Of a DNA stretch of 64,000 nucleotides, positions 4,961 through 56,079 are shown piece after piece. Numbering within the stretch: the first letter of the stretch is position 1; each line of letters opens with the position of its first letter. A program made the translations under genes and the position numbers. The notes under the pieces were generated by a model that had not been told where the DNA came from, did no database searches, and saw only the letters and a list, made by a program, of their open reading frames with translations. This stretch comes from Neocallimastix lanati (nom. inval.) (lineage: Eukaryota > Neocallimastigomycota > Neocallimastigomycetes > Neocallimastigales > Neocallimastigaceae). The stretch is from positions 127,001 to 191,000 of the forward strand of contig JACVTC010000097.1 of NCBI GenBank assembly GCA_016946835.1. Reading direction: 5' to 3'.

Positions 4961-5469
4961 TTTTAAAAAAATTTTTTTTTTTTATTTATCTAATTCTTGG
5001 ATAAATATTTAGTTTTTTATATTTTTTTTTATATATGTATATATATATATTTTTTTTATTTATTTTATTTATTTTTAAAAAACTTTTATACAAGTTTATT
5101 TAATAAAATTTTTATTATAATAATGAATTAATTAATATTTAATTAATATTTAATAAATATTTGTATTACAAGTTGAATATATTCAATTAAAAAATTTATT
5201 AAAATTTTATTATTTCTGCACTGCACTAATTTATATAAACAAACCAATAGTATGGATCATCGTTCCACAATATAAATTAATGAAAATTCTATAATATAAA
5301 TTAAACAATTAACAATTTTGTATAAAAAAAAGTTAATTAATCATATATAAACAATAATCCTTTTTTTTTTTTTTTATTTAATTTAATTTTAAATATAATT
5401 AAAAAATAAATATTCCATTTAAAAAAAAAAAAAAATTTTTTTCTTCTAAATAATTAAATAATTAATTAA

Positions 5470-12517: not shown

Positions 12518-12549
12518 ATCTCGCCCTTTAAGTCGAGCTCCTGCGAGAA
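12518..12549 (-). promoter_or_regulatory. Conserved 3' hairpin / polypurine tract of element A
   Basis: In element orientation TCTCGC AGGAGCTCGACTTAAAGG GCGAGA, directly abutting the 3' LTR. The same sequence abuts the 3' LTR of element B. The purine run AAAGGGCGAGA is the likely plus-strand primer. In A the pol frame terminates inside it (TAA at 12528-12530). Confidence 0.7.
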
Positions 12550-16802: not shown

Positions 16803-17411
16803 CTAATTATAATAGAATTCAACAAGATTAGTTCGCTTTGACAAATTTTCAATTTGAATTACATCAGTATACAACTTGTTAAGGGAATCTGGATTTGGGT
16901 TAACAACGGCTAATTGTTCCCTCATTTTGTAATGTAATCCTTTAAGAAACATATAAATTTTGGCTGATTCGTTGAAGTCCGAATTTTGGCAAGTTGTTTT
17001 GAACTGGTTAATATATTCTAACACTTGCCCATATTTTTTCTGACGAATGGTATCTAATTTACCATTAGCCACAATTGTCTCCACTTCTGGATCCCCATAA
17101 TTAATTTTAAGTTCCCTCTTAAAATTATTTAAATTATCGATCAAGGGATCTTCATTATCCCATAGATTTGAGGCCCAATTTAAAGGATCACCTCTTAAGA
17201 ATGAGGTTATAAATCTAACCTTTGATCTATCGTCTGGAAAGTCATCTGGGGTATCCTCAAAGTTCATATTTACAATTGTGAGGAACCCTTTAAGTTCTTT
17301 TCTTTCACCGTTAAAAATCGGTGGCTTACTGACCTTCCGTTTTTCTTCTCGTCCACGTTCCGCCATATCTTCAATGTGGAGGTTTCTTAGCCTAATATTA
17401 AGTTCTTCCAC
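16803..17411 (-). CDS. Element A gag (capsid region)
   Basis: 202 codons of retrotransposon gag: KPPIFNGERKELKGFL, SKVRFITSFLRGDPLNWASN, IYMFLKGLHYKMREQL. The open frame upstream contains no ATG before a stop at 17457-17459. The frame homologous to the other two elements begins at a GTG (17409-17411, VEELNIRLRNLHIEDM), and the first ATG is 14 codons further in. It ends in TAG at 16803-16805, followed in frame by the zinc-knuckle segment; element B has no stop there. The stop may be a mutation or, less likely, a readthrough site. Confidence 0.88.
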   Translation of the reverse strand: MEELNIRLRNLHIEDMAERGREEKRKVSKPPIFNGERKELKGFLTIVNMNFEDTPDDFPDDRSKVRFITSFLRGDPLNWASNLWDNEDPLIDNLNNFKRELKINYGDPEVETIVANGKLDTIRQKKYGQVLEYINQFKTTCQNSDFNESAKIYMFLKGLHYKMREQLAVVNPNPDSLNKLYTDVIQIENLSKRTNLVEFYYN

Positions 17412-17868
17412 TTTGAAAAAAAAAAAAAAAATAAAATTTTTTTTTTTTTTTTTTAATTAAAAGAATTCTTATATACGATTATTATTTTTATTTAAATTTA
17501 CTATTATAATATTATGTAAAGTCGACTTGGCTCTAACCGCTTGTAATGGTGCCCGTCGAGTAAACAAAATTATTATAATAATAATAAGTTTAAATAAAAA
17601 TAATCTCAAATATTCCAATATAATTAGTAATCACGGCGGCGACTTAATGGGTGCAATTTATAATTAGTACTTCTTCAAATAGTACTTCTTCTATTATTAC
17701 TTCTTGTTTCTTCTCTTAGTAATTCTTCAAGTGGTAGTTTTCTAATAGGTAGTTCTCTAATTGGTAATTCTCCAATTGGTAGTTCTCTAACTGGTAGTTC
17801 TTTAACTGGTAGTTCTCTAATCTCGTGATCGTAACGTGCTCCACTTTTTATAACAAGGTAGTTGTTAT
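17412..17868 (-). promoter_or_regulatory. Element A leader: primer region, 15-bp repeats, conserved hairpin
   Basis: In element orientation, ATAACAACTACC follows the LTR directly (primer-binding region). It is followed by about seven 15-bp units of the type GAACTACCAGTTAGA (about 17697-17820), then the conserved TCGAC ... GGTTAGAGCC ... GTCGAC hairpin (17521-17562), then A/T homopolymers before gag. The 15-bp units also spell repeating Glu-Leu-Pro codons in a 90-codon frame that starts in the LTR (17675-17947); this is probably a side effect. Confidence 0.65.
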
Positions 17869-18601
17869 TGTAAAAATGTTCCTTATGGAGCAGATTACAA
17901 TTACGAAAAAACAAAAAAAACAACAAAAACAACACTATCAATAACAATACTCTAATGAAATTGATTTTTTAAAAAAAATTCTTTTATTAATCACTTTATT
18001 ATAAAAATTCTTTTTATTAGTTATTAACTGCAAAATAGTTAATAACAACTACATTTTTTTTAATAGAATAATTTTACATGTATTTATATTTTTTCTTAAT
18101 TATATTATAATATACTATTTCTATTTATTTAAACATATATTCAATATAAAATAAACAAAAACTAATCTAAAATTAAATAAAGTTATAAAAAACTAAAACT
18201 AATTCAATAAGCTTTTTATTCAATTTGTTTTGACTCAAATTGAATAAGTTCTTATTTATTATTTATTTATTATTCTTTTATTATTAATACTATTAATTAT
18301 ATATTACTATTTAATTTTTATAATTATTAAACTAAACTAAAATTAAACTAAACTAAAATTATTAAAATATTTTATTACTAAATTTTAGGTTATTTAAAAA
18401 TTAATTTCATATTTTAAAATTTATATATTATATGAAATATAAATTTATTATTAATTTTCATAAATCAATTAATTTCATAAATTAATATATTTTACATAAT
18501 TTAATGCATTAGCATTATTTTGTAAACGTGAATTACATTAAATAATTTAATGTACAAAATAAATTAATTAATGTACTAAAGATATTGATCATATCTTTAC
18601 A
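17869..18601 (-). repeat. 5' LTR of element A
   Basis: 733 bp, near-identical to 11785-12517; flanked outside by the target duplication CTATG at 18602-18606. Confidence 0.93.
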
Positions 18602-21403: not shown

Positions 21404-22175
21404 TGTAAAGATATTATTAATATCTTTAAATAATTTTAATTAAATTTAATCATAAATTTAAGTAAAATTAAAATAAATTTATTTGAAATCACGTGTATAA
21501 AATTATTGAAAATATTTTTAACATAATTTCGATTTTTTTCCCAATCATACTAATAAATTAAAAATTTCTCTTGTGAAACTAGTATTTGAAAATCATTTCT
21601 TTTTATGTAATTTAATTTAAATAATAAGAGTTAAGGTTTTTCACAAGATAAATTAACAACATGAAACTATGCAATTAGTCATGTTGAAACTTACGGCATT
21701 TTATGCTAAATTTATATTAAATAATTATGACAACTTTTATATTATTTTTAAATAGAAAATATATAATAAATTTACTAATAATATTTAAATAATAAATAAA
21801 TAATAAATGAACTCAATTAGAATTGATTATATTTATTTTAGTTATTAATTATAATTCTCTTTATTTAGTAATAGTTAATTATTTATTATTAGTTTAGGTT
21901 AGTACTGTTTTAAATAAATAGCTAGATAATATAATTCAATAGGAATTATATATTATAAATGCAATAAGATAAAAATATAAATAGTTATCAAATTTCATGT
22001 ATTTTAATCGATGTAATTGTTATTAACGATTTCTTGTTAATAACACTTTAAAATAAATAAAGATTTTAATATTTAAAAAATTAATAAAACTTGTTCTTTA
22101 AAACTATTATTTTGTGTTTTAGTGTTATTATTGAAGTGTTGATTTATAATCTATTTTTTTTATCAAAACTTTATA
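21404..22175 (+). repeat. 5' LTR of element B
   Basis: 772 bp; identical by eye to 27415-28187 apart from one base in an A/T-run. Starts TGTAAAGATATTATTAATATC-like sequence shared with element A. Confidence 0.95.
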
Positions 22176-22553
22176 ATAACAATTACCTTTTTCTCTCAAT
22201 AAAATACGTTATAAGTCAAGATTATAACACGTGATACGTTAACAGTGGCTTGTGTGTGGCTTGATTCAAAATATTTTTTTACCAGTTTTAGATTATTGCT
22301 ACCAGTTTCAGAATATTGCCACCAGCTCTATAATATTGCTACCGAAATTACAATTACACGTCTTAGAACAAGATTCGAAAAACCATAAACCTTTAATATT
22401 TTAATTTATAACGTTACGTTTACTCGACAGCACCGCTTCAAAGGATAGAGCTAGATCGACTAGATGAAAAAACGTTATAGTTTGAAATATTTATTTGTTT
22501 GATATTTTTGTTAAAGAAATTGCAAAAATTTAAGTCAATTTAAAATAATCAAA
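22176..22553 (+). promoter_or_regulatory. Element B leader: primer region, 20-bp repeats, conserved hairpin
   Basis: ATAACAATTACC follows the LTR. Then come three and a half 20-bp units of the type CTACCAGTTTCAGAATATTG (about 22279-22345), and the conserved TCGAC...GGATAGAGC...TCGAC hairpin (22421-22460). Layout matches the leader of element A. Confidence 0.65.
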
Positions 22554-25500
22554 TTGGAGGGATTTAACAACCTAATAAGAAGATTCGAAGACCTTAACCT
22601 GCAAGAAATGAATCAAGAGAATCATCAAGTTCTGCCCCGTAACAATCAAAAGATTGTTAACGAACCACCGCTATTTTCTGGAATCAAGAAGGACTTTGAT
22701 GGCTTCCTTACAAGAGCTGAAATAGCTATGGAAGCCAATCCACAAGGTTTCAATAACGACCATACAAAGGTCAGATTTATAATTTCTTATCTTGTCGGTG
22801 ATCCCTTGATATGGGCCTCAAACTTGCGAAGAAATAATGATCCCCTGCTCAATGTTTATGAAGATTTTATTCAAGAATTAAGAAATCAATTTGGAGAGCA
22901 GGACATGAGCACAGTTGTCGCAAACGGTAAATTATGCAGCATCCGACAACATAAATTTGGTCATGTTAGTGAGTATATAAATGAATTTAATAAAATCAGC
23001 AGACATTCAGATTTTAACGATTCTGCTAAGATTTATATGTTTGTAAAAGGACTTCACTACAAGATGAGGGAGCACCTTGCAGTGGTAAATCCAAATCCCA
23101 ACAACTTAAGAAGACTTTTCACTGATGTCCTTAGTATCGAAAGCTTAACTAAGAGACATGAAATAAATGAATTTTTCTATCATAATTATTACCATCGTAA
23201 GGAAATAAATAATAATAATCATGCGTCTACTAGTGACCCAATGGAAATAGATTTATACAGAATTAAGAGAGGACAAACGAATACAAGTTACTTCCCTTCT
23301 AACCAGAAATTATATCAAGAAAACTCGAATTCAAGAGATGAAGAAAGAAGGAAAGGATTGTGCTATTATTGTAAAAAACCAGGTCATCGCTATTTTAACT
23401 GTCCAAATAAGAAGAAACCTGCCGGAGTCAAGATTATCAGTAAACAAGAAAACACCGCTACCACACCCTCAAGTAGTTTAAGAAGAATTAGAAGAATCAA
23501 CAGCCAAGAAGATATTGTCAAAGTTAGAAAAATCGTGGAAGAACAAAACTCACTTTTGACAAAGAAAAGTAATATCATTGATTTCTATATTAAAACAAAC
23601 AATACAGAAGAAGTAAAAGCAAGAGTTTTGATTGATTCTGGATCAGATCTTAACTTTATTCACCCAGAATTTGCGAAGGCTTTTGGAATCAAAACCCAAC
23701 AAATTGAAGAACCATTCCGTGTTACTGGTCTTGGTTACGGAATATCAACAGTTAAAAAGGAAATGGAGAAGTGCATTTTACGTTTAAAAAATCACTTAGA
23801 AACCATTCAATTGTATGTACTCAGAATTCCTGATGTTGATATTATTTTAGGTCTACCTTGGATTGAGAAGCATTCGCCTTATAATTACCACGACGCAAAG
23901 AAGATCTCCTTTGGCTCAGGATTTTGCGCTAGACACTGTAATAACGGTAAAAGAAAAAGAAAGAACAAGATCAAGAACAAGAAAAAGAACAAAGGAAAAG
24001 AATCTGCTACCGACTTGGAAGAAAATAAAATTATTGAAGACTCAAGAAAAAGAAAATCTTTCTTTGAATCCGATTCCGAATCTGATTCTGAAGAAGAAAT
24101 TTCTATTCGTGGCCGCCGAACTCGTATTAGAACTTGTACTGAATTTATTAATAGTGATAGCGATAGTGATATTAATGATACTTTTATGTTAGATAATTTT
24201 AGTGATAGCATTAGTGATAGCGATAATTTTAGTGATAGTGATGATATTATTGTTATGAATTGTGATAGTAAAATTAGTAAAAATAGTTTAAAGATCTTAA
24301 AGAAAATTTGTGAATCAAGTAAATGTAAGAAATTAAATGTAATTGAAAAATGTAATAATGAAAATAATAATTTAAATAAAGATGATGAAAAGGTCGAAGT
24401 ACCTGAAATCTATTTGATGTTTAAAGAAGTGTTTAATGAAAATAATTGTAATGTGTTACCTCCGCATCGTAATTATGATTGTGAGATTAAATTAAAAGAT
24501 AATTGTAGTTTATTTTATGGACCGTTGTATCCTTTAACTGAGACGGAGAGAGAAGAATTAAAGAAATATTTAGAAGAAAATTTAAAAAAGGGTTTTATTA
24601 GAAAATCTTCTTCTCCCGCTGGAGCACCTATTTTATTTGTTAGAAAAAAGGATGGTACATATAGATTAGTTATTGATTATAGAAAATTAAATGAAATGAC
24701 CATCCGTAACTCTTACCCTCTTCCTTTAATTAGTGAATTGTTGGATAGAGTTAAAGGTGCTAAATATTTTACTAAGTTAGATTTAAAATCTGCCTATAAC
24801 TTAGTAAGAATTAAAGAAGGTGACGAGTACAAAACTGCCTTTCGCACAAGATATGGGCACTTTGAATATCTCGTTATGCCTTTTGGGCTTAAGAATGCCC
24901 CTGCTACATTCCAACATTTTATAAATGATGTTCTCAGTGATTACTTAGATGATTTTGTAATCTCTTATATTGATGACATTTTAATTTATTCTAATACTTT
25001 AGAAGAACATCATGTACATGTCAAGAAAGTTTTAAGAAAATTGTTAGAGAATCATTTAGTTGTTAAATTAGAAAAGTGTGAATTTGATGTAACTGAAACT
25101 ACTTTTCTTGGTTATGTTTTATCAAGAGATGGAATTAAAATGGATAAAGAAAAAGTTAAAGCAATTTTAGATTGGCCTGTTCCAACAAACGTTAAAGAAA
25201 TTCAATCGTTTATTGGACTTTGTAATTATTACAGAATTTTTATTAAAGACTTTGCGAAAATTGTAAATCCTCTCCACAAATTAACTAGAAAAAATGTTCC
25301 TTTTAATTGGAGTTCTGAACAACAAAAAGCGTTTGATACTTTAAAAGAATTATTTACTACTGCTCCTATTTTGAAACATCCTGATAGCAACAAGCAATTC
25401 ATTGTTGAAACTGATGCTAGTAATTTTGCTGTTGGTGCAATTCTTTCTCAGGAATTTGATGGGCATTTGCATCCAATTGCTTTTATTTCTACTAGCTTAA

Positions 25501-27377
25501 CTAAATCCCAAAGAAATTACCCTATCTATGACAAAGAACTTCTTGCTATTAAAGTTGCATTGGAAGGATGGAGACATTACTTAGAAGGAGCTCGCCATCA
25601 GTTTATTATTTATACTGATCATAAGAATTTAACTTTCCCTCGAAAACCTGAACTTCTTTCCCAACGCCAAATTCGTTGGTATGAATTCTTATCTAGATTT
25701 GATTTTAAACTAATTTACAGAGCTGGTAAAAAGTCAGGTAAACCAGATATTTTATCAAGACGTAGTGATCATTTATTTGCTAGTGTTCGTCCTATTTCAT
25801 GCGTTATTAATTCATGTAGTTTTAAGAATGATTCTTTAATCTCCTCTATTCATGATTCTCTAGCTAATGATGAATTCTATTGCAAAATAACTGAATTTCT
25901 TAAAAATGATAATTCAAAAGATCCCCCTTTTAGTAAAATCGATAAATTTTCTCTTGACAAAAATGGTTATTTACTTTTTGAAAATTTAATTTATGTTCCC
26001 AATAAAATTAGAATAAGAGTTTTAGAACTCCATCATGACTCTATTTCTGCTGGTCATTTTGGAATTAATAAAACTATTGAACTTATTTCTCGTAATTTCT
26101 GGTGGCCTAAATTACAAAAAGATGTTAAAATGTTTATTAAATCTTGTGAAATTTGTTCAAAATCCAAAATCCCAAGACATAAGCCATATGGTTTACTTTC
26201 TCCACTTTATACACCAAATAGAGCCTGGTCTGCTATCTCTATGGATTTTATTGTTGAACTTCCGAAATCCAAAGATATGACCACTATAATGGTTGTTGTG
26301 GATCGCTTAACTAAAATGGCTCATTTTATACCATTTAGATGTCTTCCTACTGCTTCTATTGCTGCTGATTCTTTCATTGCTAATATTTTTAAACTTCATG
26401 GTTTCCCCGATTCTATTATTTCTGATCGTGGTTCTCAATTTACCTCTGATTTTTGGAATCGTCTTTGCTCTCTTTTAAATATTAAGCATTCTTTTTCTAC
26501 TGCTAATCACCCGCAGACTGATGGTCAAACGGAGAGGGTGAACTCGATATTGGAACAATATCTTCGTTGTTTCATTAACGAAAAACAAAATAATTGGTTT
26601 GATTTATTACCTTTTGCAGAATTTTCTTATAACAATACTTTACAACAATCAATAAATCAATCACCATTTTTTGCAAATTATGGATTTAATCCAAAGTTTA
26701 ATCCTGAGATTCCTTCAAACGAGAATCCACATAGAGCTGAAAAAAGAATATTGAATATTAACGAAAACATAAAGTTTTTAAAAGAAAATTTAGAACAAGC
26801 GAAAAAGACTTATAAAAAATATGCAGATTTAAAAAGAATAGATTCTCCTGATTTTAAAGTAGGAAATAAAGTTTATCTTTTAAAGGGTAATACAACAAAG
26901 AAAAATAAAAAATTATCTGATCAACTAATAGGACCCTTTGAAATCATTAGAAAAGTTAGTGATTTAGCGTATGAACTTAAACTTCCTAATAATATGCGCT
27001 GTCACCCTGTATTCCATGTTTCGCTCCTCGAACCTTACCATGAAAATGAATTCCCAAACAGAAGAAATACTCGTAGAAGAAATATTAATCTTACTACGGA
27101 TACAATTAATAGAAGTCCTGAAAGAATAATTAAAATGAAAACTTTTAACAATAAAAATCGTTACTTGATTAAATGGAAAGGATGCGATTCTAATGAAAAT
27201 ACTTGGATCGATGAAGATCAAATTTTTGATAAACAATTAATACAAGAATACTATAGAAAAGAAAAGAAGAATAAATCTTCGAATATTAACAATGAATTTT
27301 GCCAACTACCTGAAGATTCGAACGAGTACTATGTTAGGCATAAATATCAACCTTTTGTGATCGATCTTCCTTCCTAA
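22554..27377 (+). CDS. Element B gag-pol polyprotein with C-terminal chromodomain
   Basis: A single 1607-codon frame. Gag: DFDGFLTRAEIAMEANPQ, IYMFVKGLHYKMREHLAVV. Zinc knuckle C270-x2-C273-x4-H278-x4-C283. Protease active site D361 ([12 protein letters not shown]). A Ser/Asp-rich acidic linker follows (about 500-570). RT has the YIDD pair D807/D808, then RNase H (ETDASNFAVGAILSQ, YTDHKNLTF). Integrase has an HHCC finger from H1160 and catalytic D1231, D1291 and E1327, with the D-35-E spacing of functional enzymes, then GPFEIIRKVSDLAYELKLP and a chromodomain at about 1520-1570 (RYLIKWKGCDSNENTWIDED). It makes the proteins for reverse transcription and integration into chromatin. The coordinates use the TTG that aligns with GTG in A and TTG in C; the first ATG is residue 19 (22608). 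Confidence 0.95.
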   Translation: MEGFNNLIRRFEDLNLQEMNQENHQVLPRNNQKIVNEPPLFSGIKKDFDGFLTRAEIAMEANPQGFNNDHTKVRFIISYLVGDPLIWASNLRRNNDPLLNVYEDFIQELRNQFGEQDMSTVVANGKLCSIRQHKFGHVSEYINEFNKISRHSDFNDSAKIYMFVKGLHYKMREHLAVVNPNPNNLRRLFTDVLSIESLTKRHEINEFFYHNYYHRKEINNNNHASTSDPMEIDLYRIKRGQTNTSYFPSNQKLYQENSNSRDEERRKGLCYYCKKPGHRYFNCPNKKKPAGVKIISKQENTATTPSSSLRRIRRINSQEDIVKVRKIVEEQNSLLTKKSNIIDFYIKTNNTEEVKARVLIDSGSDLNFIHPEFAKAFGIKTQQIEEPFRVTGLGYGISTVKKEMEKCILRLKNHLETIQLYVLRIPDVDIILGLPWIEKHSPYNYHDAKKISFGSGFCARHCNNGKRKRKNKIKNKKKNKGKESATDLEENKIIEDSRKRKSFFESDSESDSEEEISIRGRRTRIRTCTEFINSDSDSDINDTFMLDNFSDSISDSDNFSDSDDIIVMNCDSKISKNSLKILKKICESSKCKKLNVIEKCNNENNNLNKDDEKVEVPEIYLMFKEVFNENNCNVLPPHRNYDCEIKLKDNCSLFYGPLYPLTETEREELKKYLEENLKKGFIRKSSSPAGAPILFVRKKDGTYRLVIDYRKLNEMTIRNSYPLPLISELLDRVKGAKYFTKLDLKSAYNLVRIKEGDEYKTAFRTRYGHFEYLVMPFGLKNAPATFQHFINDVLSDYLDDFVISYIDDILIYSNTLEEHHVHVKKVLRKLLENHLVVKLEKCEFDVTETTFLGYVLSRDGIKMDKEKVKAILDWPVPTNVKEIQSFIGLCNYYRIFIKDFAKIVNPLHKLTRKNVPFNWSSEQQKAFDTLKELFTTAPILKHPDSNKQFIVETDASNFAVGAILSQEFDGHLHPIAFISTSLTKSQRNYPIYDKELLAIKVALEGWRHYLEGARHQFIIYTDHKNLTFPRKPELLSQRQIRWYEFLSRFDFKLIYRAGKKSGKPDILSRRSDHLFASVRPISCVINSCSFKNDSLISSIHDSLANDEFYCKITEFLKNDNSKDPPFSKIDKFSLDKNGYLLFENLIYVPNKIRIRVLELHHDSISAGHFGINKTIELISRNFWWPKLQKDVKMFIKSCEICSKSKIPRHKPYGLLSPLYTPNRAWSAISMDFIVELPKSKDMTTIMVVVDRLTKMAHFIPFRCLPTASIAADSFIANIFKLHGFPDSIISDRGSQFTSDFWNRLCSLLNIKHSFSTANHPQTDGQTERVNSILEQYLRCFINEKQNNWFDLLPFAEFSYNNTLQQSINQSPFFANYGFNPKFNPEIPSNENPHRAEKRILNINENIKFLKENLEQAKKTYKKYADLKRIDSPDFKVGNKVYLLKGNTTKKNKKLSDQLIGPFEIIRKVSDLAYELKLPNNMRCHPVFHVSLLEPYHENEFPNRRNTRRRNINLTTDTINRSPERIIKMKTFNNKNRYLIKWKGCDSNENTWIDEDQIFDKQLIQEYYRKEKKNKSSNINNEFCQLPEDSNEYYVRHKYQPFVIDLPS

Positions 27378-27382
27378 AGTTA

Positions 27383-27414
27383 ATCTCGCAGGAGCTCGAC
27401 TTAAAGGGCGAGAT
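27383..27414 (+). promoter_or_regulatory. Conserved 3' hairpin / polypurine tract of element B
   Basis: ATCTCGC ... GCGAGAT stem with loop AGGAGCTCGACTTAAAGG, ending one base before the 3' LTR. Nearly identical in element A. Confidence 0.7.
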
Positions 27415-28187
27415 TGTAAAGATATTATTAATATCTTTAAATAATTTTAATTAAATTTAATCATAAATTTAAGTAAAATTAAAATAAATTTATTTGAAAT
27501 CACGTGTATAAAATTATTGAAAATATTTTTAACATAATTTCGATTTTTTTCCCAATCATACTAATAAATTAAAAATTTCTCTTGTGAAACTAGTATTTGA
27601 AAATCATTTCTTTTTATGTAATTTAATTTAAATAATAAGAGTTAAGGTTTTTCACAAGATAAATTAACAACATGAAACTATGCAATTAGTCATGTTGAAA
27701 CTTACGGCATTTTATGCTAAATTTATATTAAATAATTATGACAACTTTTATATTATTTTTAAATAGAAAATATATAATAAATTTACTAATAATATTTAAA
27801 TAATAAATAAATAATAAATGAACTCAATTAGAATTGATTATATTTATTTTAGTTATTAATTATAATTCTCTTTATTTAGTAATAGTTAATTATTTATTAT
27901 TAGTTTAGGTTAGTACTGTTTTAAATAAATAGCTAGATAATATAATTCAATAGGAATTATATATTATAAATGCAATAAGATAAAAATATAAATAGTTATC
28001 AAATTTCATGTATTTTAATCGATGTAATTGTTATTAACGATTTCTTGTTAATAACACTTTAAAATAAATAAAGATTTTAATATTTTAAAAAATTAATAAA
28101 ACTTGTTCTTTAAAACTATTATTTTGTGTTTTAGTGTTATTATTGAAGTGTTGATTTATAATCTATTTTTTTTATCAAAACTTTATA
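27415..28187 (+). repeat. 3' LTR of element B
   Basis: 773 bp; followed by the target duplication GTACC. Confidence 0.95.
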
Positions 28188-28604
28188 GTACCATTATTTA
28201 AAAGAAGTCTAATTTCCATAGATCATTTAAGCAAGGATAATTATAAAACTGTATTTTGTAAAAATAAGTACAACGATAAAAACTGTGCTATTTTATATAA
28301 CAATAATGGCAAAAGAATCTATACATCTTTATCAAATAAATCTAAGGTTTACAAAATACTAACAAGCAAAAATAATATAAGTAATAACTCTAATAATGTT
28401 GTATGTTATAGTCTACAAGATGCCTTAAGCGATTCTGATATGAATCTCTGGCATAGAAGAATGGGTCATTTTAATATTGACTCTATCAAAGATAATCTAA
28501 ATAAAATAAATATAAAGCGTAAGTGTAAAATTTGTTCTTGTTCGAAGTTAAAGAATCACCCTTACAAACCATCTACTAATCATATGACAAAACCATTCAT
28601 TTGA
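28188..28604 (+). pseudogene. Copia protease end and GAG-pre-integrase zinc finger
   Basis: Resumes the frame broken by element B: VPLFKRSLISIDHLSKDNYK (C-terminal protease), then DMNLWHRRMGHFNIDSIKDN and CKICSCSKLKNHPYKP, the H-H-C-C zinc finger typical of copia GAG-pre-integrase domains. A stop/frameshift at about 28602 separates it from the integrase core. Confidence 0.85.
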
Positions 28605-44589: not shown

Positions 44590-44752
44590 TATTTTATTTT
44601 ATTTTACTTTCATTAATAATTTACTCCTTTATCCTACTTTACTATATAATATATTTATATTTTTTATTCTTCATATTATTCTTCATATTATTTTAATTTT
44701 AATCTCGTTTTATTTTCAAATATTTAAATAATACACAAAAAAATGAAAATAT

Positions 44753-44785
<33 letters not shown>

Positions 44786-45012
44786 AGTTAAAATAAAAAT
44801 AAAAATATTTGATAAATGTTTATTATTTATTTTTAATGATCATTATTTATTATAAATAAAGAAATATAAAATAAAATTATTAAATATTGATAAATTATAA
44901 TTAAATATCGATTTTTATATTAATCTATTAGTAATCATAGATTTCTATTTTTAGTTATATATATATATATATATATACACACATTTTTATTTATTTATTT
45001 TATTTTTTATTT

Positions 45013-45046
<34 letters not shown>

Positions 45047-47498
45047 TTAATAATTAAGATATACACATATAAAAGTATATATATATATATATAAAGTAAT
45101 AAATAAAATTAAAAAATAATTTTATATTTTCTAAATTACTATAAAAAATTAATTAACATTTTCTTTAAAGATCTTTTCAATTTCTTCATAATCATCGGTT
45201 GGAATACGAATAATTTCTTTACCAAAGTATTTTTCAATTACTTTCATATCATTATAACTCTTTTTATCATGAACAAAGTTAATTGCTACTCCTACTCTAC
45301 CAAATCTACCTGTACGACCAATACGATGAAGATAAGTTTCTGGATCTGGTCTACCTTCACCATCTAAAGGAATATCATAGTTAATAACTAAGTTAACTTG
45401 TAAAACATCAATACCACGAGCAAGAACGTTAGTAGTAATAAGAACCTTGGCTTTACCAGATCTAAAATCATCCATAACTTGATCACGTTCGTCACCCTCA
45501 AATTTTCCATGAAGAACAATTACCTTGTGACCTTCATTTGTCATTTTTCTTCCAAGTCTATCGGCAACATCACGTCTTGCAACAAAAATCATACTTTGAC
45601 TCACTGATAATAAACCATAGATAACACTAAGAATTTCTTCCTTTTGCTTTTCATCTTTACAGTCCATGTAGAATTGTTTAATACCCTCAACAGACAATTC
45701 CTCAGTCTTTAATGAGATTTTATTAGCATTTGGTGCAAAACGATTAGCGAATTTCCATAAATTGGGTGAGAAAGTAGCCGAGAAAAGAGCAATTTGACAA
45801 GATGCTGGAACCATCCTATATAATGTTATTTAATTAATTATACCAGATAGAGATATTTAATTAATTATATCAAAAAATTAATTTCAATTATCACTTAATT
45901 ATAAAACAACTGAAGAAATTAAAATATAAAATATATATATATATTTATAATTCACTTTAATCTTTGTTGTACATCTCCATAATCATATAAAAAAATTATT
46001 TTAAAATTTACTTTAATTATTATATTTAGTATTACTTTTTACTTTCACATTTTAATTAAAAAAATATTACATTTCACTTTCACTTTCACATTATAATTAA
46101 ATATTTATTCTAAGTTTCTATTTTAAAAATTTTAATTCGTTTTTATTGATTTTCAATCTGTTGAAAAATTTGTCAAAACTTTTAATATAAATAAATAATT
46201 ATTCCTTATTTATTTTATTAACTTTCTTATATCAATTGTTTCTTTTTAAAATTTTATTTTGTCTCATTTCTCAATGTATTATTATTATCAATAAAAAAAT
46301 AAAAAAAAAAAAAAACCCTTTCATTGGATTCAATATTTCATTAATTTTCTATATACCTCATGTATAAAGAAGTATGAAATAATTAATTCTATAAATAAAA
46401 ACATATAATGTAAAACTTACTTTCTAATACGAATACTTTGATCTCCTAAACCTTGTAAATCTAACATATTATCGGCTTCATCTAAAACAAAGAATCTGAT
46501 ATTGTTGGTTAAAAGTCTACGTTTTCTGATTAAATCTATAACAGTACCTGGTGTACCAATAATAATATTTGATTCTATTTTTCCACCTTTTGGTAAAGAA
46601 TCTTTAACAGCTAACTGAATACTCACTGGATAATCTTTTCCAAGCGATTGAACAACAAATAAAATTTGACGAACTAATTCACGACTTGGGGCTAAAACAA
46701 TAGCTTGTGGTGCTTTTAAGTCAATATTTATTCTACTAAGCATAGCAAGAGTGAATGCTGCCGTTTTACCTGTACCAGATTGTGATTGACCAATAAGATT
46801 AGTTGGTGGGTCGTGTAATAATAAAGGAATAGCTTTTTCTTGAATTTTGGATGGCTTGATGAAACCTACTCTATAAATATTTTCCAATAACTTTTCATGT
46901 AATTTCATATCTTCGAAAGTTGACGCACCTACATACAATTTATCAGTCAAATCTTTAACATTACTTGCTGCTAATTTAACTTCAACAACTGCTTCAGCAG
47001 AATCAGTTGGTGCTTTCTTATCTTTAGATTCATCTTTGACTTGTTCAGGTTTATCATTAACTTGTTCAGTTGAAAGGTTTTTTATTCCTTCTTCAATTTT
47101 ATTAATACCTATTTTTATAACAATTTTATTGATTATATATTATTAGATGAATAAATTAAATAAATAAACAAATAATTTAAAATTATATTATATATTTTAA
47201 TATTTTATTAAGGGTGTATATATTTAATTTTTTTCAATCAATTATATTCTGTTTTTTTTTTTTTTTTAAAAAAAAAATATTATTTCAAAAAATAATTATT
47301 TTTTATTTGTATATAATTTTTCTTTCGATATAATTTAAAAAAAATAAAAAGTATATATATAAATAAACATATAGAAATTTTATTTTTTATAATATCCAAA
47401 AATAAAATCATTCTTTTTTTTTACGTTTTCTTTTTTAACAACCTTCTTTATCACTCATTTTACTTTATAATAATTAAAATTACTTATTGAAAAAGCAA
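44590..47498. repeat. Left arm of the DBP5 inverted repeat
   Basis: About 2.9 kb, an inverted copy of 52936-55830. Within the gene the arms look identical, including both introns (605 and 334 bp in each). Differences seen are in microsatellites (an A/T-run of 31 against 30, TA-run length) and toward the outer edge, where a short extra repeat is present on the left. The inner edge falls 40 bp upstream of both start codons. Confidence 0.93.
45149..47458 (-). CDS. DBP5: DEAD-box mRNA-export helicase Dbp5 (DDX19 type), left copy
   Basis: Three exons on the minus strand: 47443-47458, 46421-47108 and 45149-45815, with GT-AG introns of 334 and 605 bp, giving 456 residues. The protein is identical to the right copy. 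Motifs: Q motif GFIKPSKIQ (about 87-95), motif I GQSQSGTGKT (112-121), Ia APSREL (145-150), GTPGT (190-194), DEAD (215-218), SAT (247-249), ARGID (367-371) and HRIGRTGR (398-405). The segments IPLLLHDPP, DNMLDLQGLGDQ and the acidic C-terminus PTDDYEEIEKIFKENVN mark it as Dbp5/DDX19 among DEAD-box proteins. Known role: an RNA-dependent ATPase at the cytoplasmic face of the nuclear pore that strips export factors from mRNA, activated by Gle1 with inositol hexakisphosphate. It lies head-to-head with GLE1, about 1.0 kb apart. Confidence 0.95.
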
Positions 47499-48503
47499 GT
47501 AAAAAATATAGATAAATAAAAAGTTGTTATTATAATAGTATTAATTACGTTAAAAAGTTTTTTTTATTGGTTACTTTTTACTATCAAATATAATACAATG
47601 TATTAAGTATAATAAAATATAAAAAAAATAAAATATAAGTAGATAAATATGTAATATAAATATATATAAAATATTAAAATTAATAAATTAACATAATAAA
47701 ATATATTAATAGTGTATATATAAATATAAAATAAAATATATTGTAAAAAATTATATATGGTTAAAACATATGTGAAAAATGAGTTAAACATTTTGAATTG
47801 TAATGTAGTAAATATTGTAAACAAGCCACAAGATAATAATATTATTATATATATATAATAATCTAATGAAGTATTTAAAATAACTCTATATTGAAATCTA
47901 CATTGAAAGGGTTATTTTAAATTATTAAGAAATATATTGCTAAATATAAATAATTTTTTATGTTATATAATTAATGGTACTTTCAATAATGTTAATATAT
48001 AATATAAATAAATTTCTTCTATTTGGGAATATATAGAAAGAATTAGAAATTTTATATAAATTGAATAATATTACATAATATATGACAATTTTAACACAAT
48101 CTTTTTATTGGATCGTACCAATAGCATATTTCTTTTAATCAATAATATTTTTATATATTTATAATGTAATGTGGCGTAAATTCATTATTATGAATATTAT
48201 TAATATAAAAAAAAATATCAAAAAATAAATAAATAAAATAATAAAAAATTAAAAAATTATAAATTACAAATCACTTATTTTTTTAGAATTTTTTTGAATT
48301 TTTATTATTATTTTTTTTTTTTGTAATATTAAATAATATTTTAATTCAAAATTGTAAAATTATTCTATTTTAAATATTTAAAAAAAAATAATCTTTTTTT
48401 TCATTAAAATAATTTATAATAATATATTTATATATAAAGTTTATTTATTTATTTATTTTTTTTTTATTTGAATTTTAGTAAAAGATTAAAATATAAAATA
48501 AAA
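47459..48503. other. Divergent intergenic region between left DBP5 and GLE1
   Basis: Only the first 40 bp beside DBP5 belong to the repeat; the rest is unique A+T-rich DNA. It must contain the GLE1 promoter and whatever part of the left DBP5 promoter lies beyond 40 bp. No named element seen. Confidence 0.45.
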
Positions 48504-49138
48504 ATGGGAACGGTTGGTTTATTTAATGATGACACTTCAAAAGATGAATATAAAATTCAAACCAATGTAAATGAGAAGTATATAAATAATTTAAAAGTTA
48601 TAAAAAAATTAAAGCATAAACCAATTATGCGTAAACCAGTTTACAAGAATCATATAAATATTTTATCAAGAAACAATAAAAATGAAAGAAATAAAAGAAT
48701 TTTAAAGTGTTCTTTAACATTTCCTATTAATCCAATAATAAAAGAAATTCGTAAAACTCAATATTCAAATTGCTGGAGAAAATTATTTGATAATATTGAA
48801 AAAGAATCTTGGGTATAATATAATTTATAAGTATTTTAAACATAAATTGAAATAACATAAATGTATAAATATTAATAAAATAAGTATATAATATAATATT
48901 TCATATTCTTTTGAAAATTTAATTTTATTTATAAATATATAATTAATTAGTTAGAAGCAAATTTAAAAATAAAAGAACTTGAGAATCAGGACATAAATAA
49001 AGGAATATCAATAAATAAAACTTTTAAAGAAGAAATTGAGCAAACTCAAAAAGAAATGAATAAATTATCTTTATGGAGGTTAATATTATAATATTTTTTA
49101 TGAGTAATATATATTTAATAATAATAAAATAAAATAAA

Positions 49139-49175
<37 letters not shown>

Positions 49176-51865
49176 TTGAATTATATTAAGAAATTTTAAA
49201 TACAAATAAATAATATTTATAATTCTTTAAATCTTTGTATATATTTAGTAAAGTAATAACAGAAACGGAAACTTCAAAAATGAATAAAAATAATGAAATA
49301 ATGAAAAAGGTAACTATATTTAATAAATTAATATGTATAAAAAATAACTGTTATTAAAATTTTAATAAATTAAATTATTTAAAATTTTAATGAATAAATA
49401 ATAAAAATAGAGATAATGAAAGTATTTTTTTTTTAATTAATTAAAATAATTTGTTTAATAATAAAAAAGATAGAAGTAAAAGTATAAGCAATAAAATAAA
49501 ATTTTATTAAATTAATTAAGAATGATTAATATAATGAATGGATTATGATAATAATAAAAAAATTTAAAATATTAAGATTAAAAGTTTTTTTCAATTAACT
49601 CTATACAAAATACTAATATATCTGATATATTATATATAATATTATTAAATGGAATAAATTTATAAAAATGAATATTTATAGGAAATTGACGAGTGTATAA
49701 AATTTAAGAAACAACAAGTGGAAATAATAGAAAAAAAGAAAAAGGAAGAACAAGAGCAAAAGAAAAAGGAAGAACAAGAAAAAAAATTAAAATATGAGAA
49801 AGCTAAAAATGAACAAGAAAAATTAGAAAAAGAAAAAGCTCTTAAATTGAAGCAAGAAAATGAAATAAAAATCAAAGAACAGGAAGAAAAAATAAAAAAG
49901 GAAGCACAAAAAAATAAAGCCCCAGTAAATGATGTAAATAATTATATATTTAATATGTTATAAAAATTCAATTTATCAATATTTATTCATTTTAAATGTA
50001 TATATATAAATTTTAAAGTCATTAACATCAATTAAAAGTTCTTCAGCGGTTGAAGAAGCTCAATTATACTTAAATGAAATCAAGGTAATGGATAAAATAA
50101 ATGTATAAATAATAAATCATTGATTTATTATAGTTTTCAATCTTACTAACTTAAGTTTATAATAAATTTAATAAAACTATTAAGAAAATTAAAAATGAAA
50201 TTAGACCTGCTGTCAAAGAAAATAAAGAATGGAAAAATCAAACATTAAAATTAAAACTTAGAATTAATACTAGAGTAATTCAAATTTCTAGCACTAAAGA
50301 ATCTGTTAATGAAATTGTAAATTTTTAATTTAATGATAACATAATACTATTAATAAAATATATATAGTATTTTCTAAATAAATTCTAATTATTTTTTTTT
50401 TTTTTTATAATTTAATTTATTTTATTTTTTATATTTTATAAATCTATATATATTAAATATCAATGAATTATCGTAATGATAATTAAAATAAATATAAAAA
50501 TAACAAAAATAAATATTAATTATATGAATAATTCGATAAATAGTCTACTGATTTGAATAATATTTTAAATCAAGGAAAGCAAATATCGACTGAAGTATAT
50601 TATTGGTTAATGGATTTCCTTGCTAAAGCAATAATGGTAAATATTTATATTTATAATAAATTATAAAAAAAATTTTATATTCTTATCTATTGCAAATATG
50701 TTATTATTAATTACTTTAGAAACAAGCTGAAAATGAAATTGGTATTAATAAGGTAATGGCATTCCCAGTGGCACATGTCATTAATAATATTGTTAATAAT
50801 CATGAACCATTCTTTAAAATATTTATTGGAAGATTATATAAGAAATGCATTTATCTTGTACCTAGATATATAAATAAAACTAAGGTATTTTTTTTTTCAA
50901 ATAATTATAATTATTATTATTTATTGAATATCTTTTAAGTATTTATAATAGCAAAATCAATATAGAAATAATAACAACAATATAAAATAATGTTGAATAA
51001 TAATAATTTAAAATAAATAATTAAAAATAATAATATATAATAATATAATAATAATATATAATAATAATAATAATAATAAAACAATAATAGGATAAAACTG
51101 ATATAGAATACTTGAAAGAAATTGGTTACAAAAAATCGGGTAAAGGAATGGAAAATGAAAGTAGATATTATAACAGAATAGAAGGAATGGTATCATTATT
51201 TTCAGGTAAAAATAGTAATTTATTTATAAAAGAATAAAAATTTATATTATAAATATTAAAATTTATTATTTTTTAAAAAATTTTCTTTCAATAAAAATTT
51301 GTTATTTATTATTTTGAACCAATATTTTATTTTGTATAATTATAGCAATAATTCAAACGCCGAGTACAAGTAAATTGATATATTCTATAAATAATATTTA
51401 TATATATATTTAATTCATTATTAATAAATAAAACATATGAATCTATTATTTTTAATGTATAAGATGAAAATTCAAAATTAAATATGGCATCTGGCTGGAC
51501 ATGGTTAGCACGACTATTAAATATGCCACCAAGAAAAATAACATTATTTGTGTTAATTACATTTTTAGAAGTAAATATATTTGTAATTAAAATAAAAATA
51601 ATAAAAAAATAAAATTAAAATTAAAATAAAATAATATTTACTTATATATACCTTTAATAAAAATAAAAATTAGATTGCTGGTTATGAAATGCTTAACGTA
51701 TATGGAAAACAAATGAATAAAATATTAAATTTCATATTAAATACTTATATTCCAATGGCACCAAAAGAAAGTGTTTCATTTGTTACGAGGCTAAAATTAT
51801 TTATTGAAAAATATAAAAATGATGGTAATCGCCTAAATATACCCGAAGGAAAAAATTTTACATAA
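48504..51865 (+). CDS. GLE1: Nuclear-pore mRNA-export factor Gle1, 12 exons
   Basis: Exons read as 48504-48812, 48951-49078, 49249-49309, 49682-49933, 50019-50084, 50185-50316, 50544-50636, 50720-50884, 51091-51205, 51346-51369 (24 bp), 51464-51570 and 51674-51865, with GT-AG introns and consistent phases, for 547 residues (yeast Gle1 is of similar size). Exon 4 is a long charged coiled coil (residues about 167-250). The C-terminal Gle1 domain starts at about 317: YYWLMDFLAKAIM, VMAFPVAHVINNI, GRLYKKCIYLVPRY, GMVSLFSAIIQ, SGWTWLARLLNMPP, LITFLEIAGYEML and FVTRLKLFIEKYKNDG. These match the Gle1 fold block by block. Gle1 binds Dbp5 at the pore and, with inositol hexakisphosphate, stimulates its ATPase. 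The exon 6 acceptor (50184) is the least certain junction. Confidence 0.9.
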
Positions 51866-52610
51866 TATTTTTAATTAAAGTGGTTATAAAAATGTATATA
51901 CAAATATATACGTTTATTACTTATAAAATAATCATAATAGAATTTATTTTTTTTTATAAAGTAATCATAATATAATTAATTATTATTTTTTTTTTTTTTT
52001 AAAATTTATAATTATTAAACCATTAACTTTAATTGAATCTATAGTACTATATTTTAATATAATCTCTAGTACTTTTATCTTCCTAATAGTTAAATATATA
52101 ATTTTAAAACTTATACATTTGAATTATTTATTTTAAAAAAAATATTTATATTAAAAATTTTTTTTTTTATTTTTTTTTTATAATTTATTTATTTATTTAT
52201 TTTCATTTAAGTTCTATTTTGCTTATGAATAAATATTGTTGGGTTTTATATATATTTATACTATAAATTGTGATGTATTACATGTAAAATAATGATTATT
52301 CGTATTAGTCGTGTTATAAAATACTCTATAAAAAATTAAATCTTTATCAAAATATATAACTTTTATTTGCTATTATTTAAATATTTCATTAATTTATTTT
52401 AATAAAATAAATACTATATATCTCTTTTTAATTTACAAAATTATTTGTTTTTATTTGAACATTTAATTCAATTTTTTTTATATAATATACTAAATACTGT
52501 ATCACTTTTTCGTAGTTCTAAAATTATAAAAGCATGAAGTATATTCTAAACTATTAATTAATTATTTTGTTTATTTATTTATTTTTATGTTCTTTCTTGG
52601 TGGAATTTTA
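51866..52610. other. A+T-rich spacer downstream of GLE1
   Basis: T-runs and short A+T-rich sequence. Should include the GLE1 polyadenylation region; nothing specific seen. Confidence 0.4.
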
Positions 52611-52730
52611 ACCTTCATGGAATATTATATTAATGACTAAATTAGCATGCAAAATATTAATACCACGAATAATAAGAACCCTGACCTTAGTATTTCTAAA
52701 GTCATCCATGCCATCTTCTTCAATTTCAAA
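52611..52730 (-). pseudogene. Decayed third DBP5 fragment
   Basis: A minus-strand frame reads GMDDFRNTKVRVLI, then RGINILHANLVIN. It aligns with VMDDFRSGKAKVLI(TTNVLA)RGIDVLQVNLVIN of Dbp5 (the motif V region), missing six residues. It lies in the spacer, opposite in orientation to the neighbouring right copy and the same as the left copy. It is too diverged to come from the current arms. Confidence 0.75.
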
Positions 52731-52935
52731 ATTTATATGGGACGATTTTCTTCATCCTAATGATTAATATTTAAAACAATTTATATATTTCAAATTATTT
52801 AATTAATTTATTAATAAACGTATTAAAAAATTATGGCTTTAAATTAAAATTTAAAAACGCCACATTATAAAACGCAATTTCATAAATATATATATATCTT
52901 TTCTTTTTTTTTTTTTTTTTTTTTTTAATTTTTAT

Positions 52936-55387
52936 TTGCTTTTTCAATAAGTAATTTTAATTATTATAAAGTAAAATGAGTGATAAAGAAGGTTGTTAAA
53001 AAAGAAAACGTAAAAAAAAAGAATGATTTTATTTTTGGATATTATAAAAAATAAAATTTCTATATGTTTATTTATATATATACTTTTTATTTTTTTTAAA
53101 TTATATCGAAAGAAAAATTATATACAAATAAAAAATAATTATTTTTTGAAATAATATTTTTTTTTTAAAAAAAAAAAAAAAACAGAATATAATTGATTGA
53201 AAAAAATTAAATATATACACCCTTAATAAAATATTAAAATATATAATATAATTTTAAATTATTTGTTTATTTATTTAATTTATTCATCTAATAATATATA
53301 ATCAATAAAATTGTTATAAAAATAGGTATTAATAAAATTGAAGAAGGAATAAAAAACCTTTCAACTGAACAAGTTAATGATAAACCTGAACAAGTCAAAG
53401 ATGAATCTAAAGATAAGAAAGCACCAACTGATTCTGCTGAAGCAGTTGTTGAAGTTAAATTAGCAGCAAGTAATGTTAAAGATTTGACTGATAAATTGTA
53501 TGTAGGTGCGTCAACTTTCGAAGATATGAAATTACATGAAAAGTTATTGGAAAATATTTATAGAGTAGGTTTCATCAAGCCATCCAAAATTCAAGAAAAA
53601 GCTATTCCTTTATTATTACACGACCCACCAACTAATCTTATTGGTCAATCACAATCTGGTACAGGTAAAACGGCAGCATTCACTCTTGCTATGCTTAGTA
53701 GAATAAATATTGACTTAAAAGCACCACAAGCTATTGTTTTAGCCCCAAGTCGTGAATTAGTTCGTCAAATTTTATTTGTTGTTCAATCGCTTGGAAAAGA
53801 TTATCCAGTGAGTATTCAGTTAGCTGTTAAAGATTCTTTACCAAAAGGTGGAAAAATAGAATCAAATATTATTATTGGTACACCAGGTACTGTTATAGAT
53901 TTAATCAGAAAACGTAGACTTTTAACCAACAATATCAGATTCTTTGTTTTAGATGAAGCCGATAATATGTTAGATTTACAAGGTTTAGGAGATCAAAGTA
54001 TTCGTATTAGAAAGTAAGTTTTACATTATATGTTTTTATTTATAGAATTAATTATTTCATACTTCTTTATACATGAGGTATATAGAAAATTAATGAAATA
54101 TTGAATCCAATGAAAGGGTTTTTTTTTTTTTTTATTTTTTTATTGATAATAATAATACATTGAGAAATGAGACAAAATAAAATTTTAAAAAGAAACAATT
54201 GATATAAGAAAGTTAATAAAATAAATAAGGAATAATTATTTATTTATATTAAAAGTTTTGACAAATTTTTCAACAGATTGAAAATCAATAAAAACGAATT
54301 AAAATTTTTAAAATAGAAACTTAGAATAAATATTTAATTATAATGTGAAAGTGAAAGTGAAATGTAATATTTTTTTAATTAAAATGTGAAAGTAAAAAGT
54401 AATACTAAATATAATAATTAAAGTAAATTTTAAAATAATTTTTTTATATGATTATGGAGATGTACAACAAAGATTAAAGTGAATTATAAATATATATATA
54501 TATTTTATATTTTAATTTCTTCAGTTGTTTTATAATTAAGTGATAATTGAAATTAATTTTTTGATATAATTAATTAAATATCTCTATCTGGTATAATTAA
54601 TTAAATAACATTATATAGGATGGTTCCAGCATCTTGTCAAATTGCTCTTTTCTCGGCTACTTTCTCACCCAATTTATGGAAATTCGCTAATCGTTTTGCA
54701 CCAAATGCTAATAAAATCTCATTAAAGACTGAGGAATTGTCTGTTGAGGGTATTAAACAATTCTACATGGACTGTAAAGATGAAAAGCAAAAGGAAGAAA
54801 TTCTTAGTGTTATCTATGGTTTATTATCAGTGAGTCAAAGTATGATTTTTGTTGCAAGACGTGATGTTGCCGATAGACTTGGAAGAAAAATGACAAATGA
54901 AGGTCACAAGGTAATTGTTCTTCATGGAAAATTTGAGGGTGACGAACGTGATCAAGTTATGGATGATTTTAGATCTGGTAAAGCCAAGGTTCTTATTACT
55001 ACTAACGTTCTTGCTCGTGGTATTGATGTTTTACAAGTTAACTTAGTTATTAACTATGATATTCCTTTAGATGGTGAAGGTAGACCAGATCCAGAAACTT
55101 ATCTTCATCGTATTGGTCGTACAGGTAGATTTGGTAGAGTAGGAGTAGCAATTAACTTTGTTCATGATAAAAAGAGTTATAATGATATGAAAGTAATTGA
55201 AAAATACTTTGGTAAAGAAATTATTCGTATTCCAACCGATGATTATGAAGAAATTGAAAAGATCTTTAAAGAAAATGTTAATTAATTTTTTATAGTAATT
55301 TAGAAAATATAAAATTATTTTTTAATTTTATTTATTACTTTATATATATATATATATACTTTTATATGTGTATATCTTAATTATTAA

Positions 55388-55421
<34 letters not shown>

Positions 55422-55449
55422 AAATAAAAAATAAAATAAATAAATAAAA

Positions 55450-55481
<32 letters not shown>

Positions 55482-55650
55482 CTAAAAATAGAAATCTATG
55501 ATTACTAATAGATTAATATAAAAATCGATATTTAATTATAATTTATCAATATTTAATAATTTTATTTTATATTTCTTTATTTATAATAAATAATGATCAT
55601 TAAAAATAAATAATAAACATTTATCAAATATTTTTATTTTTATTTTAACT

Positions 55651-55683
<33 letters not shown>

Positions 55684-55830
55684 ATATTTTCATTTTTTTG
55701 TGTATTATTTAAATATTTGAAAATAAAACGAGATTAAAATTAAAATAATATGAAGAATAAAATATATATATATATTATATAGTAAAGTAGGATAAAGGAG
55801 TAAATTATTAATAAAAGTAAAATAAAATAA
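52936..55830. repeat. Right arm of the DBP5 inverted repeat
   Basis: Inverted copy of 44590-47498. The outer match fades at about 55750-55830, after the shared GTAAAGTAGGATAAAGGAGT segment. Confidence 0.93.
52976..55285 (+). CDS. DBP5: DEAD-box mRNA-export helicase Dbp5 (DDX19 type), right copy
   Basis: Exons 52976-52991 (16 bp, MSDKE plus one base), 53326-54013 and 54619-55285; introns of 334 and 605 bp with GT...AG ends (the second starts GTAAGT). Protein of 456 residues identical to the left copy. The N-terminal 60 residues are Lys/Glu-rich and hydrophilic, as in other Dbp5 proteins where this part is regulatory. All helicase motifs are present (GTGKT, DEAD, SAT, ARGID, HRIGRTGR), so both copies look active. 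It lies in tandem downstream of GLE1, 1.1 kb away. The two copies share only 40 bp of upstream sequence, so their promoters differ. Confidence 0.95.
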
Positions 55831-56079
55831 AGGGTAGAATATATATATAATTAAAGTACAACTAGGATTAAATAAAATGAATTGTGAAGTTGTATAAAAG
55901 AGTAAATTATTAATAAAAATAAAAAAAAAAAAAATAAATACTAGAATATGAATATATAGTACAGATTGAATAAAAATAAAATAAAATGAAATGAAATAAA
56001 ATAAAAATAAAGCATGCTAAGTATTAATAGATATCTATGGTTTTCCATAGATTAAAAATATATATAACTTCTAATTTTG
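55831..56079. other. Spacer with a partial repeat of the arm edge
   Basis: GAGTAAATTATTAATAAAA recurs here after the arm ends (about 55898), showing a local duplication. No gene. Confidence 0.4.

What the first reader, a model, noticed from the sequence alone, without database searches (positions are those of the whole stretch)
44590..55830. Palindromic export module: two DBP5 copies flanking their activator GLE1
Seen: two identical 456-residue Dbp5 helicases in inverted 2.9-kb arms, with a single 12-exon GLE1 in the 5.4-kb spacer. Known: Gle1 is the nuclear-pore activator of Dbp5. Inference: linkage and duplication of the enzyme around its activator may matter for dosage or co-expression in mRNA export. 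I know of no described DBP5-GLE1-DBP5 palindrome in fungi, but cannot search.
Basis: partly seen in the sequence, partly recalled or inferred. Interest (0 to 1): 0.88.

Follow-up and report, generated by a model that had tools for sequence, protein, structure and literature searches.

The report
Relocated, mirror-doubled DBP5 around GLE1
In a rumen fungus the gene for an mRNA-export enzyme appears to have left its old neighbourhood, settled beside the gene for its own activator, and then been copied as a mirror image on the other side; the move is well supported, a benefit from it is not shown.

Summary
Two 456-aa DBP5 genes lie in inverted ~2.9-kb arms (44593-47498, 52936-55831) around a 12-exon GLE1 with one place in the genome. 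The arms are identical over 2823 bp except one TA unit; 1452 of those bp are non-coding.

The "module" reading is partly supported. The linkage is lineage-specific: in Piromyces finnis DBP5 and GLE1 are on different scaffolds, and DBP5 shares a 1,961,624-bp scaffold with RIB1 (GTP cyclohydrolase II). In the window's own genome (inferred Neocallimastix lanati) two collinear duplicated segments, C132 and C96, each keep a decayed DBP5 beside RIB1. Simplest history: DBP5 lay near RIB1; a copy beside GLE1 became the live one; both old copies died; the new one was doubled recently. An older DBP5 relic (52629-52739, minus) lies in the spacer, so DBP5 sequence was at GLE1 before the present arms.

Only ~40 bp upstream of each DBP5 start is shared, so the copies have different upstream DNA. 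Dosage, co-expression, gene conversion between arms and flipping of the GLE1 spacer are untested. Long reads were not available. By-product: signs of a large-scale genome duplication.

The parts
44593..47498 (-). left arm of the inverted repeat
   Evidence: alignment of both arms
52936..55831 (+). right arm of the inverted repeat
   Evidence: alignment of both arms
44676..47498 (-). substitution-free core of the left arm, 2823 bp (its partner differs by one TA unit)
45149..47458 (-). DBP5, left copy; exons 47458-47443, 47108-46421, 45815-45149 (stop included)
   Evidence: translation identical to the right copy, 456 aa
52976..55285 (+). DBP5, right copy; exons 52976-52991, 53326-54013, 54619-55285 (stop included)
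   Evidence: gene model, equal to public protein P0009; Pfam and PDB matches
48504..51865 (+). GLE1, 12 exons, 547 aa
   Evidence: model; PF07817; PDB GLE1 chains; spliced public protein P0001
47459..48503 (.). 1045-bp interval between the start codons of left DBP5 and GLE1 (head to head)
   Evidence: coordinates; a shared promoter is inference
52629..52739 (-). decayed DBP5 fragment (residues about 337-380), tail to tail with GLE1
   Evidence: shuffle control
44590..44716 (.). outer end of the left arm, lying in an A/T-rich repeat found in many contigs
   Evidence: (output of 28 was cut)
55720..56011 (.). outer end of the right arm and flank, with similarity to the same A/T-rich repeat
   Evidence: output cut

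Best explanation
A relocated essential gene, later doubled in mirror image. Ancestrally DBP5 lay on the same stretch as RIB1 (GTP cyclohydrolase II). In the Neocallimastix lineage a DBP5 copy with introns came to lie beside GLE1, the gene of its activator, and became the live one; the RIB1-linked copies, present in two homeologous segments, decayed. At GLE1 an earlier DBP5 copy also decayed (spacer relic), and the live gene was recently duplicated as an inverted ~2.9-kb segment on the other side of GLE1. Shown: anatomy, relics, lack of an intact copy at the old sites, the P. finnis linkage pattern. Inferred: direction and order of events. Not shown: any advantage. The simplest mechanism for the arms is a recent inverted segmental duplication with its outer end in a genome-wide A/T repeat, possibly kept identical by gene conversion.
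For: Two intact DBP5 places, next-best matches being other helicases at 41-43% or relics; GLE1 in one place. C132 and C96 are collinear: unnamed gene, DBP5 relic, RIB1, in one order and orientation, 69-79% nucleotide identity; RIB1 has just these two places. P. finnis DBP5 and RIB1 both on a 1,961,624-bp contig, GLE1 on a 235,110-bp one, each with one contig. The C132 relic has the other genera's residue at 6 of 8 columns where this DBP5 and its nearest relative share a derived residue, the derived one at 0 of 8: an old copy. The C610 relic shares 5 of 9 private residues: a young copy. The arm core is identical including 1452 non-coding bp: recency or conversion, not protein constraint.
Against: The distance between DBP5 and RIB1 in P. 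finnis is unknown; two genes share a scaffold of 1.96 of 56.46 Mb (size) by chance about 3-4% of the time. One outgroup genome only. The relics could be dead duplicates of a gene that always lived elsewhere. The age class of the spacer relic is undecided (1 derived, 1 ancestral, 2 other of 4 columns). Where DBP5 lies in other Neocallimastix genomes is not known here. Assembly was not checked with reads.
Confidence: 0.72

Rival explanations
1. A selected co-expression or dosage module: linkage of DBP5 to GLE1 (head to head, 1045 bp between starts) and its doubling are adaptive for mRNA export.
For: The partners are physically linked in known complexes (PDB entries 3rrm, 3rrn hold both Dbp5 and Gle1); DBP5 sequence occurred at GLE1 more than once (relic plus two copies); all DBP5 copies at the old site are dead; DBP5 evolved faster in this lineage, GLE1 did not.
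Against: No expression data; linkage absent in P. finnis; the copies share only ~40 bp upstream, so one of them lacks the original promoter; local duplication needs no selection; the case was picked as striking from a large scan.
Confidence: 0.15
2. Assembly artefact: there is one DBP5 locus and a false inverted copy.
For: The published N. lanati assembly is from noisy single-molecule reads (average 7,821 bp, MECAT, passages), and the arms are almost identical.
Against: Each arm has its own sequence on both sides and the arms differ at five places; a 2.9-kb arm is shorter than the average read; a fold-back artefact would mirror the outer flanks, which differ.
Confidence: 0.06
3. Two ancient DBP5 genes, one by RIB1 and one by GLE1, existed before the genera split and were lost in opposite ways.
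For: The C132 relic branches off before the split of P0009 and P0010; P. finnis kept the RIB1-linked gene.
Against: On the tree P0009+P0010 nest among the other anaerobic fungi with support 87/83 rather than outside them, though that fork is drawn open; needs extra losses.
Confidence: 0.15
4. The arms are terminal inverted repeats of a mobile element that carries GLE1.
For: Inverted arms; retrotransposon-like ORFs about 1.2 kb outside the left arm.
Against: In the arms only DBP5 was found; no further full-length copy of arm or spacer in the genome; the spacer is a host gene with one place.
Confidence: 0.02

Closest known systems
Human FLNA-EMD interval between near-identical inverted repeats (recalled, not read)
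   Same: host genes without a second copy lie between near-identical inverted arms that could recombine and flip the spacer
   Different: there the arms are not described as carrying the enzyme of which the spacer gene is the activator; flipping is not tested here
Flip/flop mating-type loci of methylotrophic yeasts with inverted repeats (recalled, not read)
   Same: inverted repeats flanking a segment whose inversion would change promoter neighbourhood
   Different: no regulated switching is known or tested here; the arms hold full genes
Dbp5-Gle1-InsP6 complex (PDB 3rrm, 3rrn listed)
   Same: both proteins are clear orthologues of the complex members
   Different: that is a protein complex; gene linkage is no part of it
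Gene relocation by duplication and loss of the old copy (general kind)
   Same: relics at the old site, live copy elsewhere
   Different: the new place is beside the physical partner, and the live copy is itself doubled in mirror image

Membership tests
Dbp5/DDX19 DEAD-box helicase | best sequence relatives are Dbp5/DDX19, not other DEAD proteins | tested here: met
   the nine best PDB sequences are Dbp5 or DDX19B, the tenth is eIF4A
Dbp5/DDX19 DEAD-box helicase | helicase motifs kept (motif names recalled) | tested here: met
   GTGKT, DEAD, SAT, ARGID and HRIGRTGR are invariant in 9 aligned proteins
Dbp5/DDX19 DEAD-box helicase | ATPase activity stimulated by Gle1 with InsP6 | not testable with these tools
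   needs purified proteins
GLE1 | C-terminal GLE1 domain PF07817 | tested here: met
   241.7 bits, positions 2-249 of 250
GLE1 | basic residues of the InsP6 pocket (roles recalled) | tested here: inconclusive
   AKA..KQAE, RLYKKC and GYKK align with yeast AKA..RQAE, RLVKKC and GWKR; their roles come from memory
Conserved DBP5-GLE1 gene linkage | the genes are adjacent in other anaerobic fungi | tested here: not met
   P. finnis only: contigs of 1,961,624 and 235,110 bp; other genera not testable
Gene-conversion-maintained palindrome | arms more alike than their age predicts | tested here: inconclusive
   all 3 substitutions in the outer 83 bp (2.3e-5 if uniform), but those bases lie in a repeat that may mutate faster
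Mobile element with terminal inverted repeats | more than one genomic copy | tested here: not met
   no further full-length copy of arm or spacer (lists cut, best matches shown first)

The most novel reading that the evidence does not exclude
Selection favoured the gene of an mRNA-export ATPase beside the gene of its nuclear-pore activator, and inverted duplication then made a flippable cassette in which GLE1 can share its upstream interval with either DBP5 copy, tuning their ratio.
Probability: 0.12. Interest if true: 0.8.

Novelty: new variant of a known kind. Interest (0 to 1): 0.52.

Why it matters
For an essential export gene both the old and the new address can be read here: relics in both halves of a duplicated segment, and a live, doubled copy beside its physical partner. 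That makes it testable whether linkage of interacting proteins was selected or accidental. It also points to a large-scale duplication that may help explain why Neocallimastix genomes are near 200 Mb and that of Piromyces finnis 56 Mb (sizes).

Tried and rejected
Conserved linkage: rejected for P. finnis. Mobile element: no further copies. Uncollapsed haplotypes: the paralogue pairs compared are 65-82% identical and the spacer has no second copy. Viral-contig scans with GLE1 and DBP5: no relatives. Polarity of the arms from the outer repeat (output of 28 cut, head and tail read): both flanks go on in similar A/T repeat, undecided. Homeologue of the C760 region through a nucleotide-sugar transporter: 7 strong places in several contigs, uninformative. 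Introns of the relics: too decayed to judge. Base rate: six contiguous 10-kb pieces of C112 held 0 inverted repeats of 200 bp or more within a piece and 0 self-matches of 300 bp or more across the 60 kb; in 104 kb of C760 the DBP5 pair was the only inverted pair of at least 300 bp and 95% identity, others being 77-91%. Among the listed matches for DEAD (39), Pkinase (151 found, list cut) and Ras (101) I saw by eye no second near-identical inverted pair within 20 kb. Papers: searches were seen as listings; PMC12341934 and PMC8561657 as passages; search 77 for the human comparison gave nothing useful.

Full report
Where it is. The window is C760:127001-191000 of a 199,045,447-bp, 762-contig assembly. 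Contig C96 of that assembly is 272,841 bp, and the RIB1 protein read from it is identical to a public protein whose longest contig is also 272,841 bp and whose named source is Neocallimastix lanati (P0129). The published version has 200.97 Mb and 970 contigs (PMC8561657, passages seen), so the release differs.

Observation. The arms are 44593-47498 and 52936-55831. They differ by three substitutions and a 12-bp indel in the outermost 83 bp and by one TA unit further in. The remaining 2823 bp hold no substitution, and 1452 of them are non-coding, so protein constraint is not the cause of the identity. Each arm holds a complete three-exon DBP5 of 456 aa whose start codon lies only 40 bp from the inner edge. 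The copies therefore have different upstream DNA: the left one faces GLE1 across 1045 bp, the right one lies downstream of GLE1.

Identities. DBP5: the nine best PDB sequences are Dbp5 or DDX19B and the tenth is eIF4A; an identical 456-aa protein is public, named from Neocallimastix sp. 'constans' (P0009). GLE1: PF07817 at 241.7 bits; all 7 PDB sequences matched are GLE1. The 12-exon model agrees exactly over residues 139-547 with a public protein from contigs of at most 1562 bp (P0001); that stretch spans about 2.8 kb here, so the public contig must be spliced RNA, which also shows transcription of GLE1 in some sample. GLE1 matches at one place in the genome. DBP5 has two intact places; the next matches are other helicases at 41-43% or decayed fragments.

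A relic inside the spacer. At 52629-52739, minus strand, lies a decayed DBP5 fragment. Against the DBP5 exons the spacer scores 50.9 bits; 200 dinucleotide shuffles reach at most 39.2. Its best match among the helicase loci in hand is DBP5. It is tail to tail with GLE1, so DBP5 sequence was at this locus before the present arms. Three more relics lie elsewhere: C610:168622-168991 at 83%, C132:103822-104202 with stops, and C96:177048-178059 in pieces.

The old home. Next to the C132 relic is a GTP cyclohydrolase II gene, RIB1 (PF00925, scanned as the C96 protein), whose one other place in the genome is on C96, and C96 has a DBP5 relic too. The two segments are collinear: an unnamed gene, the DBP5 relic and RIB1 in the same order and orientation, at 69-79% nucleotide identity. 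In Piromyces finnis the intact DBP5 (P0014) and RIB1 (P0136) are each on one contig of 1,961,624 bp, while GLE1 (P0005) is on one of 235,110 bp. I conclude that DBP5 was ancestrally on the same stretch as RIB1, that both duplicated copies there died in this fungus, and that the live gene sits in a derived place beside GLE1. The gap between DBP5 and RIB1 in P. finnis is not known to me, and two genes would share a scaffold of that size by chance in 3-4% of cases (1.96 of 56.46 Mb, size); the two relics beside RIB1 are the stronger evidence.

Timing. At eight columns where P0009 (this gene) and P0010 (its nearest public relative, 92%) share a residue against the other genera, the C132 relic has the other genera's residue at 6, a third residue at 2 and the derived one at none; at three columns private to P0009 it is ancestral at 2 and other at 1. 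It therefore seems to have split off before P0009 and P0010 did. The C610 relic shares 5 of 9 private residues (1 ancestral, 3 other) and is young. The spacer relic is undecided (1, 1 and 2 of 4). On the DBP5 tree the P0009+P0010 stem is 0.109 and the tips are 0.082 and 0.019. Of seven relative-rate comparisons of P0009, five have p below 0.05 (0.0004 to 0.024) and two do not (0.07, 0.18); none is corrected for multiple testing. GLE1 shows no p below 0.05 in 8 comparisons. So DBP5 seems to have sped up in the lineage that moved it, GLE1 not.

How the arms arose and what they do. Most likely this is a recent inverted segmental duplication whose outer end lies in a genome-wide A/T repeat. The clustering of all three substitutions in the outer 83 bp (2.3e-5 if uniform) would fit the edge of a gene-conversion tract, but these bases lie in that repeat, so I leave it open. 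Identical inverted arms should allow the GLE1 spacer to flip; this is a prediction. A benefit through dosage or co-expression is possible and untested. With 27,677 predicted genes (PMC8561657) a random landing beside one named partner is rare, but the case was picked as striking from a large scan, so I do not count that as evidence of selection.

Artefact check. Each arm has its own sequence on both sides, and the arms differ at five places; a fold-back or duplicated contig end would not give this. Reads were not available.

Novelty. Searches (7 papers, listing; 0 papers; 2 papers, listing) showed no title or abstract start on DBP5-GLE1 gene linkage; the library holds open-licence papers only. 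Inverted gene duplications, and genes between inverted arms, are known kinds (comparisons recalled). Relocation beside the partner, with traceable relics, is the new turn.

By-product. Of 49 paralogue pairs that I picked by eye from tables, 7 contig pairs recur, with 9 recurrences beyond the first; 5000 shuffles gave a mean of 0.31 and a maximum of 4. C46 and C334 share four pairs in one inverted order. With C132/C96 this suggests a large-scale or whole-genome duplication. The N. cameroonii var. constans paper reports 'no evidence of specific polyploidy' (PMC12341934, passage seen); that concerns another strain and may mean present ploidy, but it speaks against my reading. Searches were seen as listings and showed no title on a Neocallimastix genome duplication.

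Noticed in passing
whole assembly, e.g. C46/C334, C44/C665, C588/C224, C68/C741, C201/C66, C290/C334, C19/C368: Paralogue pairs recur between the same contigs (7 contig pairs among 49 pairs picked by eye; 9 extra against a shuffled mean of 0.31), at 65-82% identity where compared: signs of a large-scale or whole-genome duplication.
   Followed up: partly
C132:100491-105195 (L034, L061) and C96:176189-182017 (L060): Collinear homeologous segments with RIB1 kept on both and DBP5 decayed on both.
   Followed up: yes
DBP5 residues about 23-37: This DBP5 has about 7 residues more in its N-terminal extension than P0010-P0013; the young C610 relic has them, the C96 relic seems not to.
   Followed up: partly
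window 11781-18601 and 21404-28196: Two retrotransposon-like elements in opposite orientation, each with end repeats about 99.5% alike and long open frames: recent insertions.
   Followed up: no
window 3740-4981, minus: 413-aa open frame made of 39-residue repeats (117-nt array), looking like ankyrin repeats; not scanned against a library.
   Followed up: no
C760:64999, 194010, 211335: Three nucleotide-sugar-transporter-like genes (name by eye) on the same contig, with further relatives on C26, C3, C532 and C13.
   Followed up: no
C166:66749, 71783, 76485: Three protein-kinase genes in direct tandem with almost equal scores.
   Followed up: no
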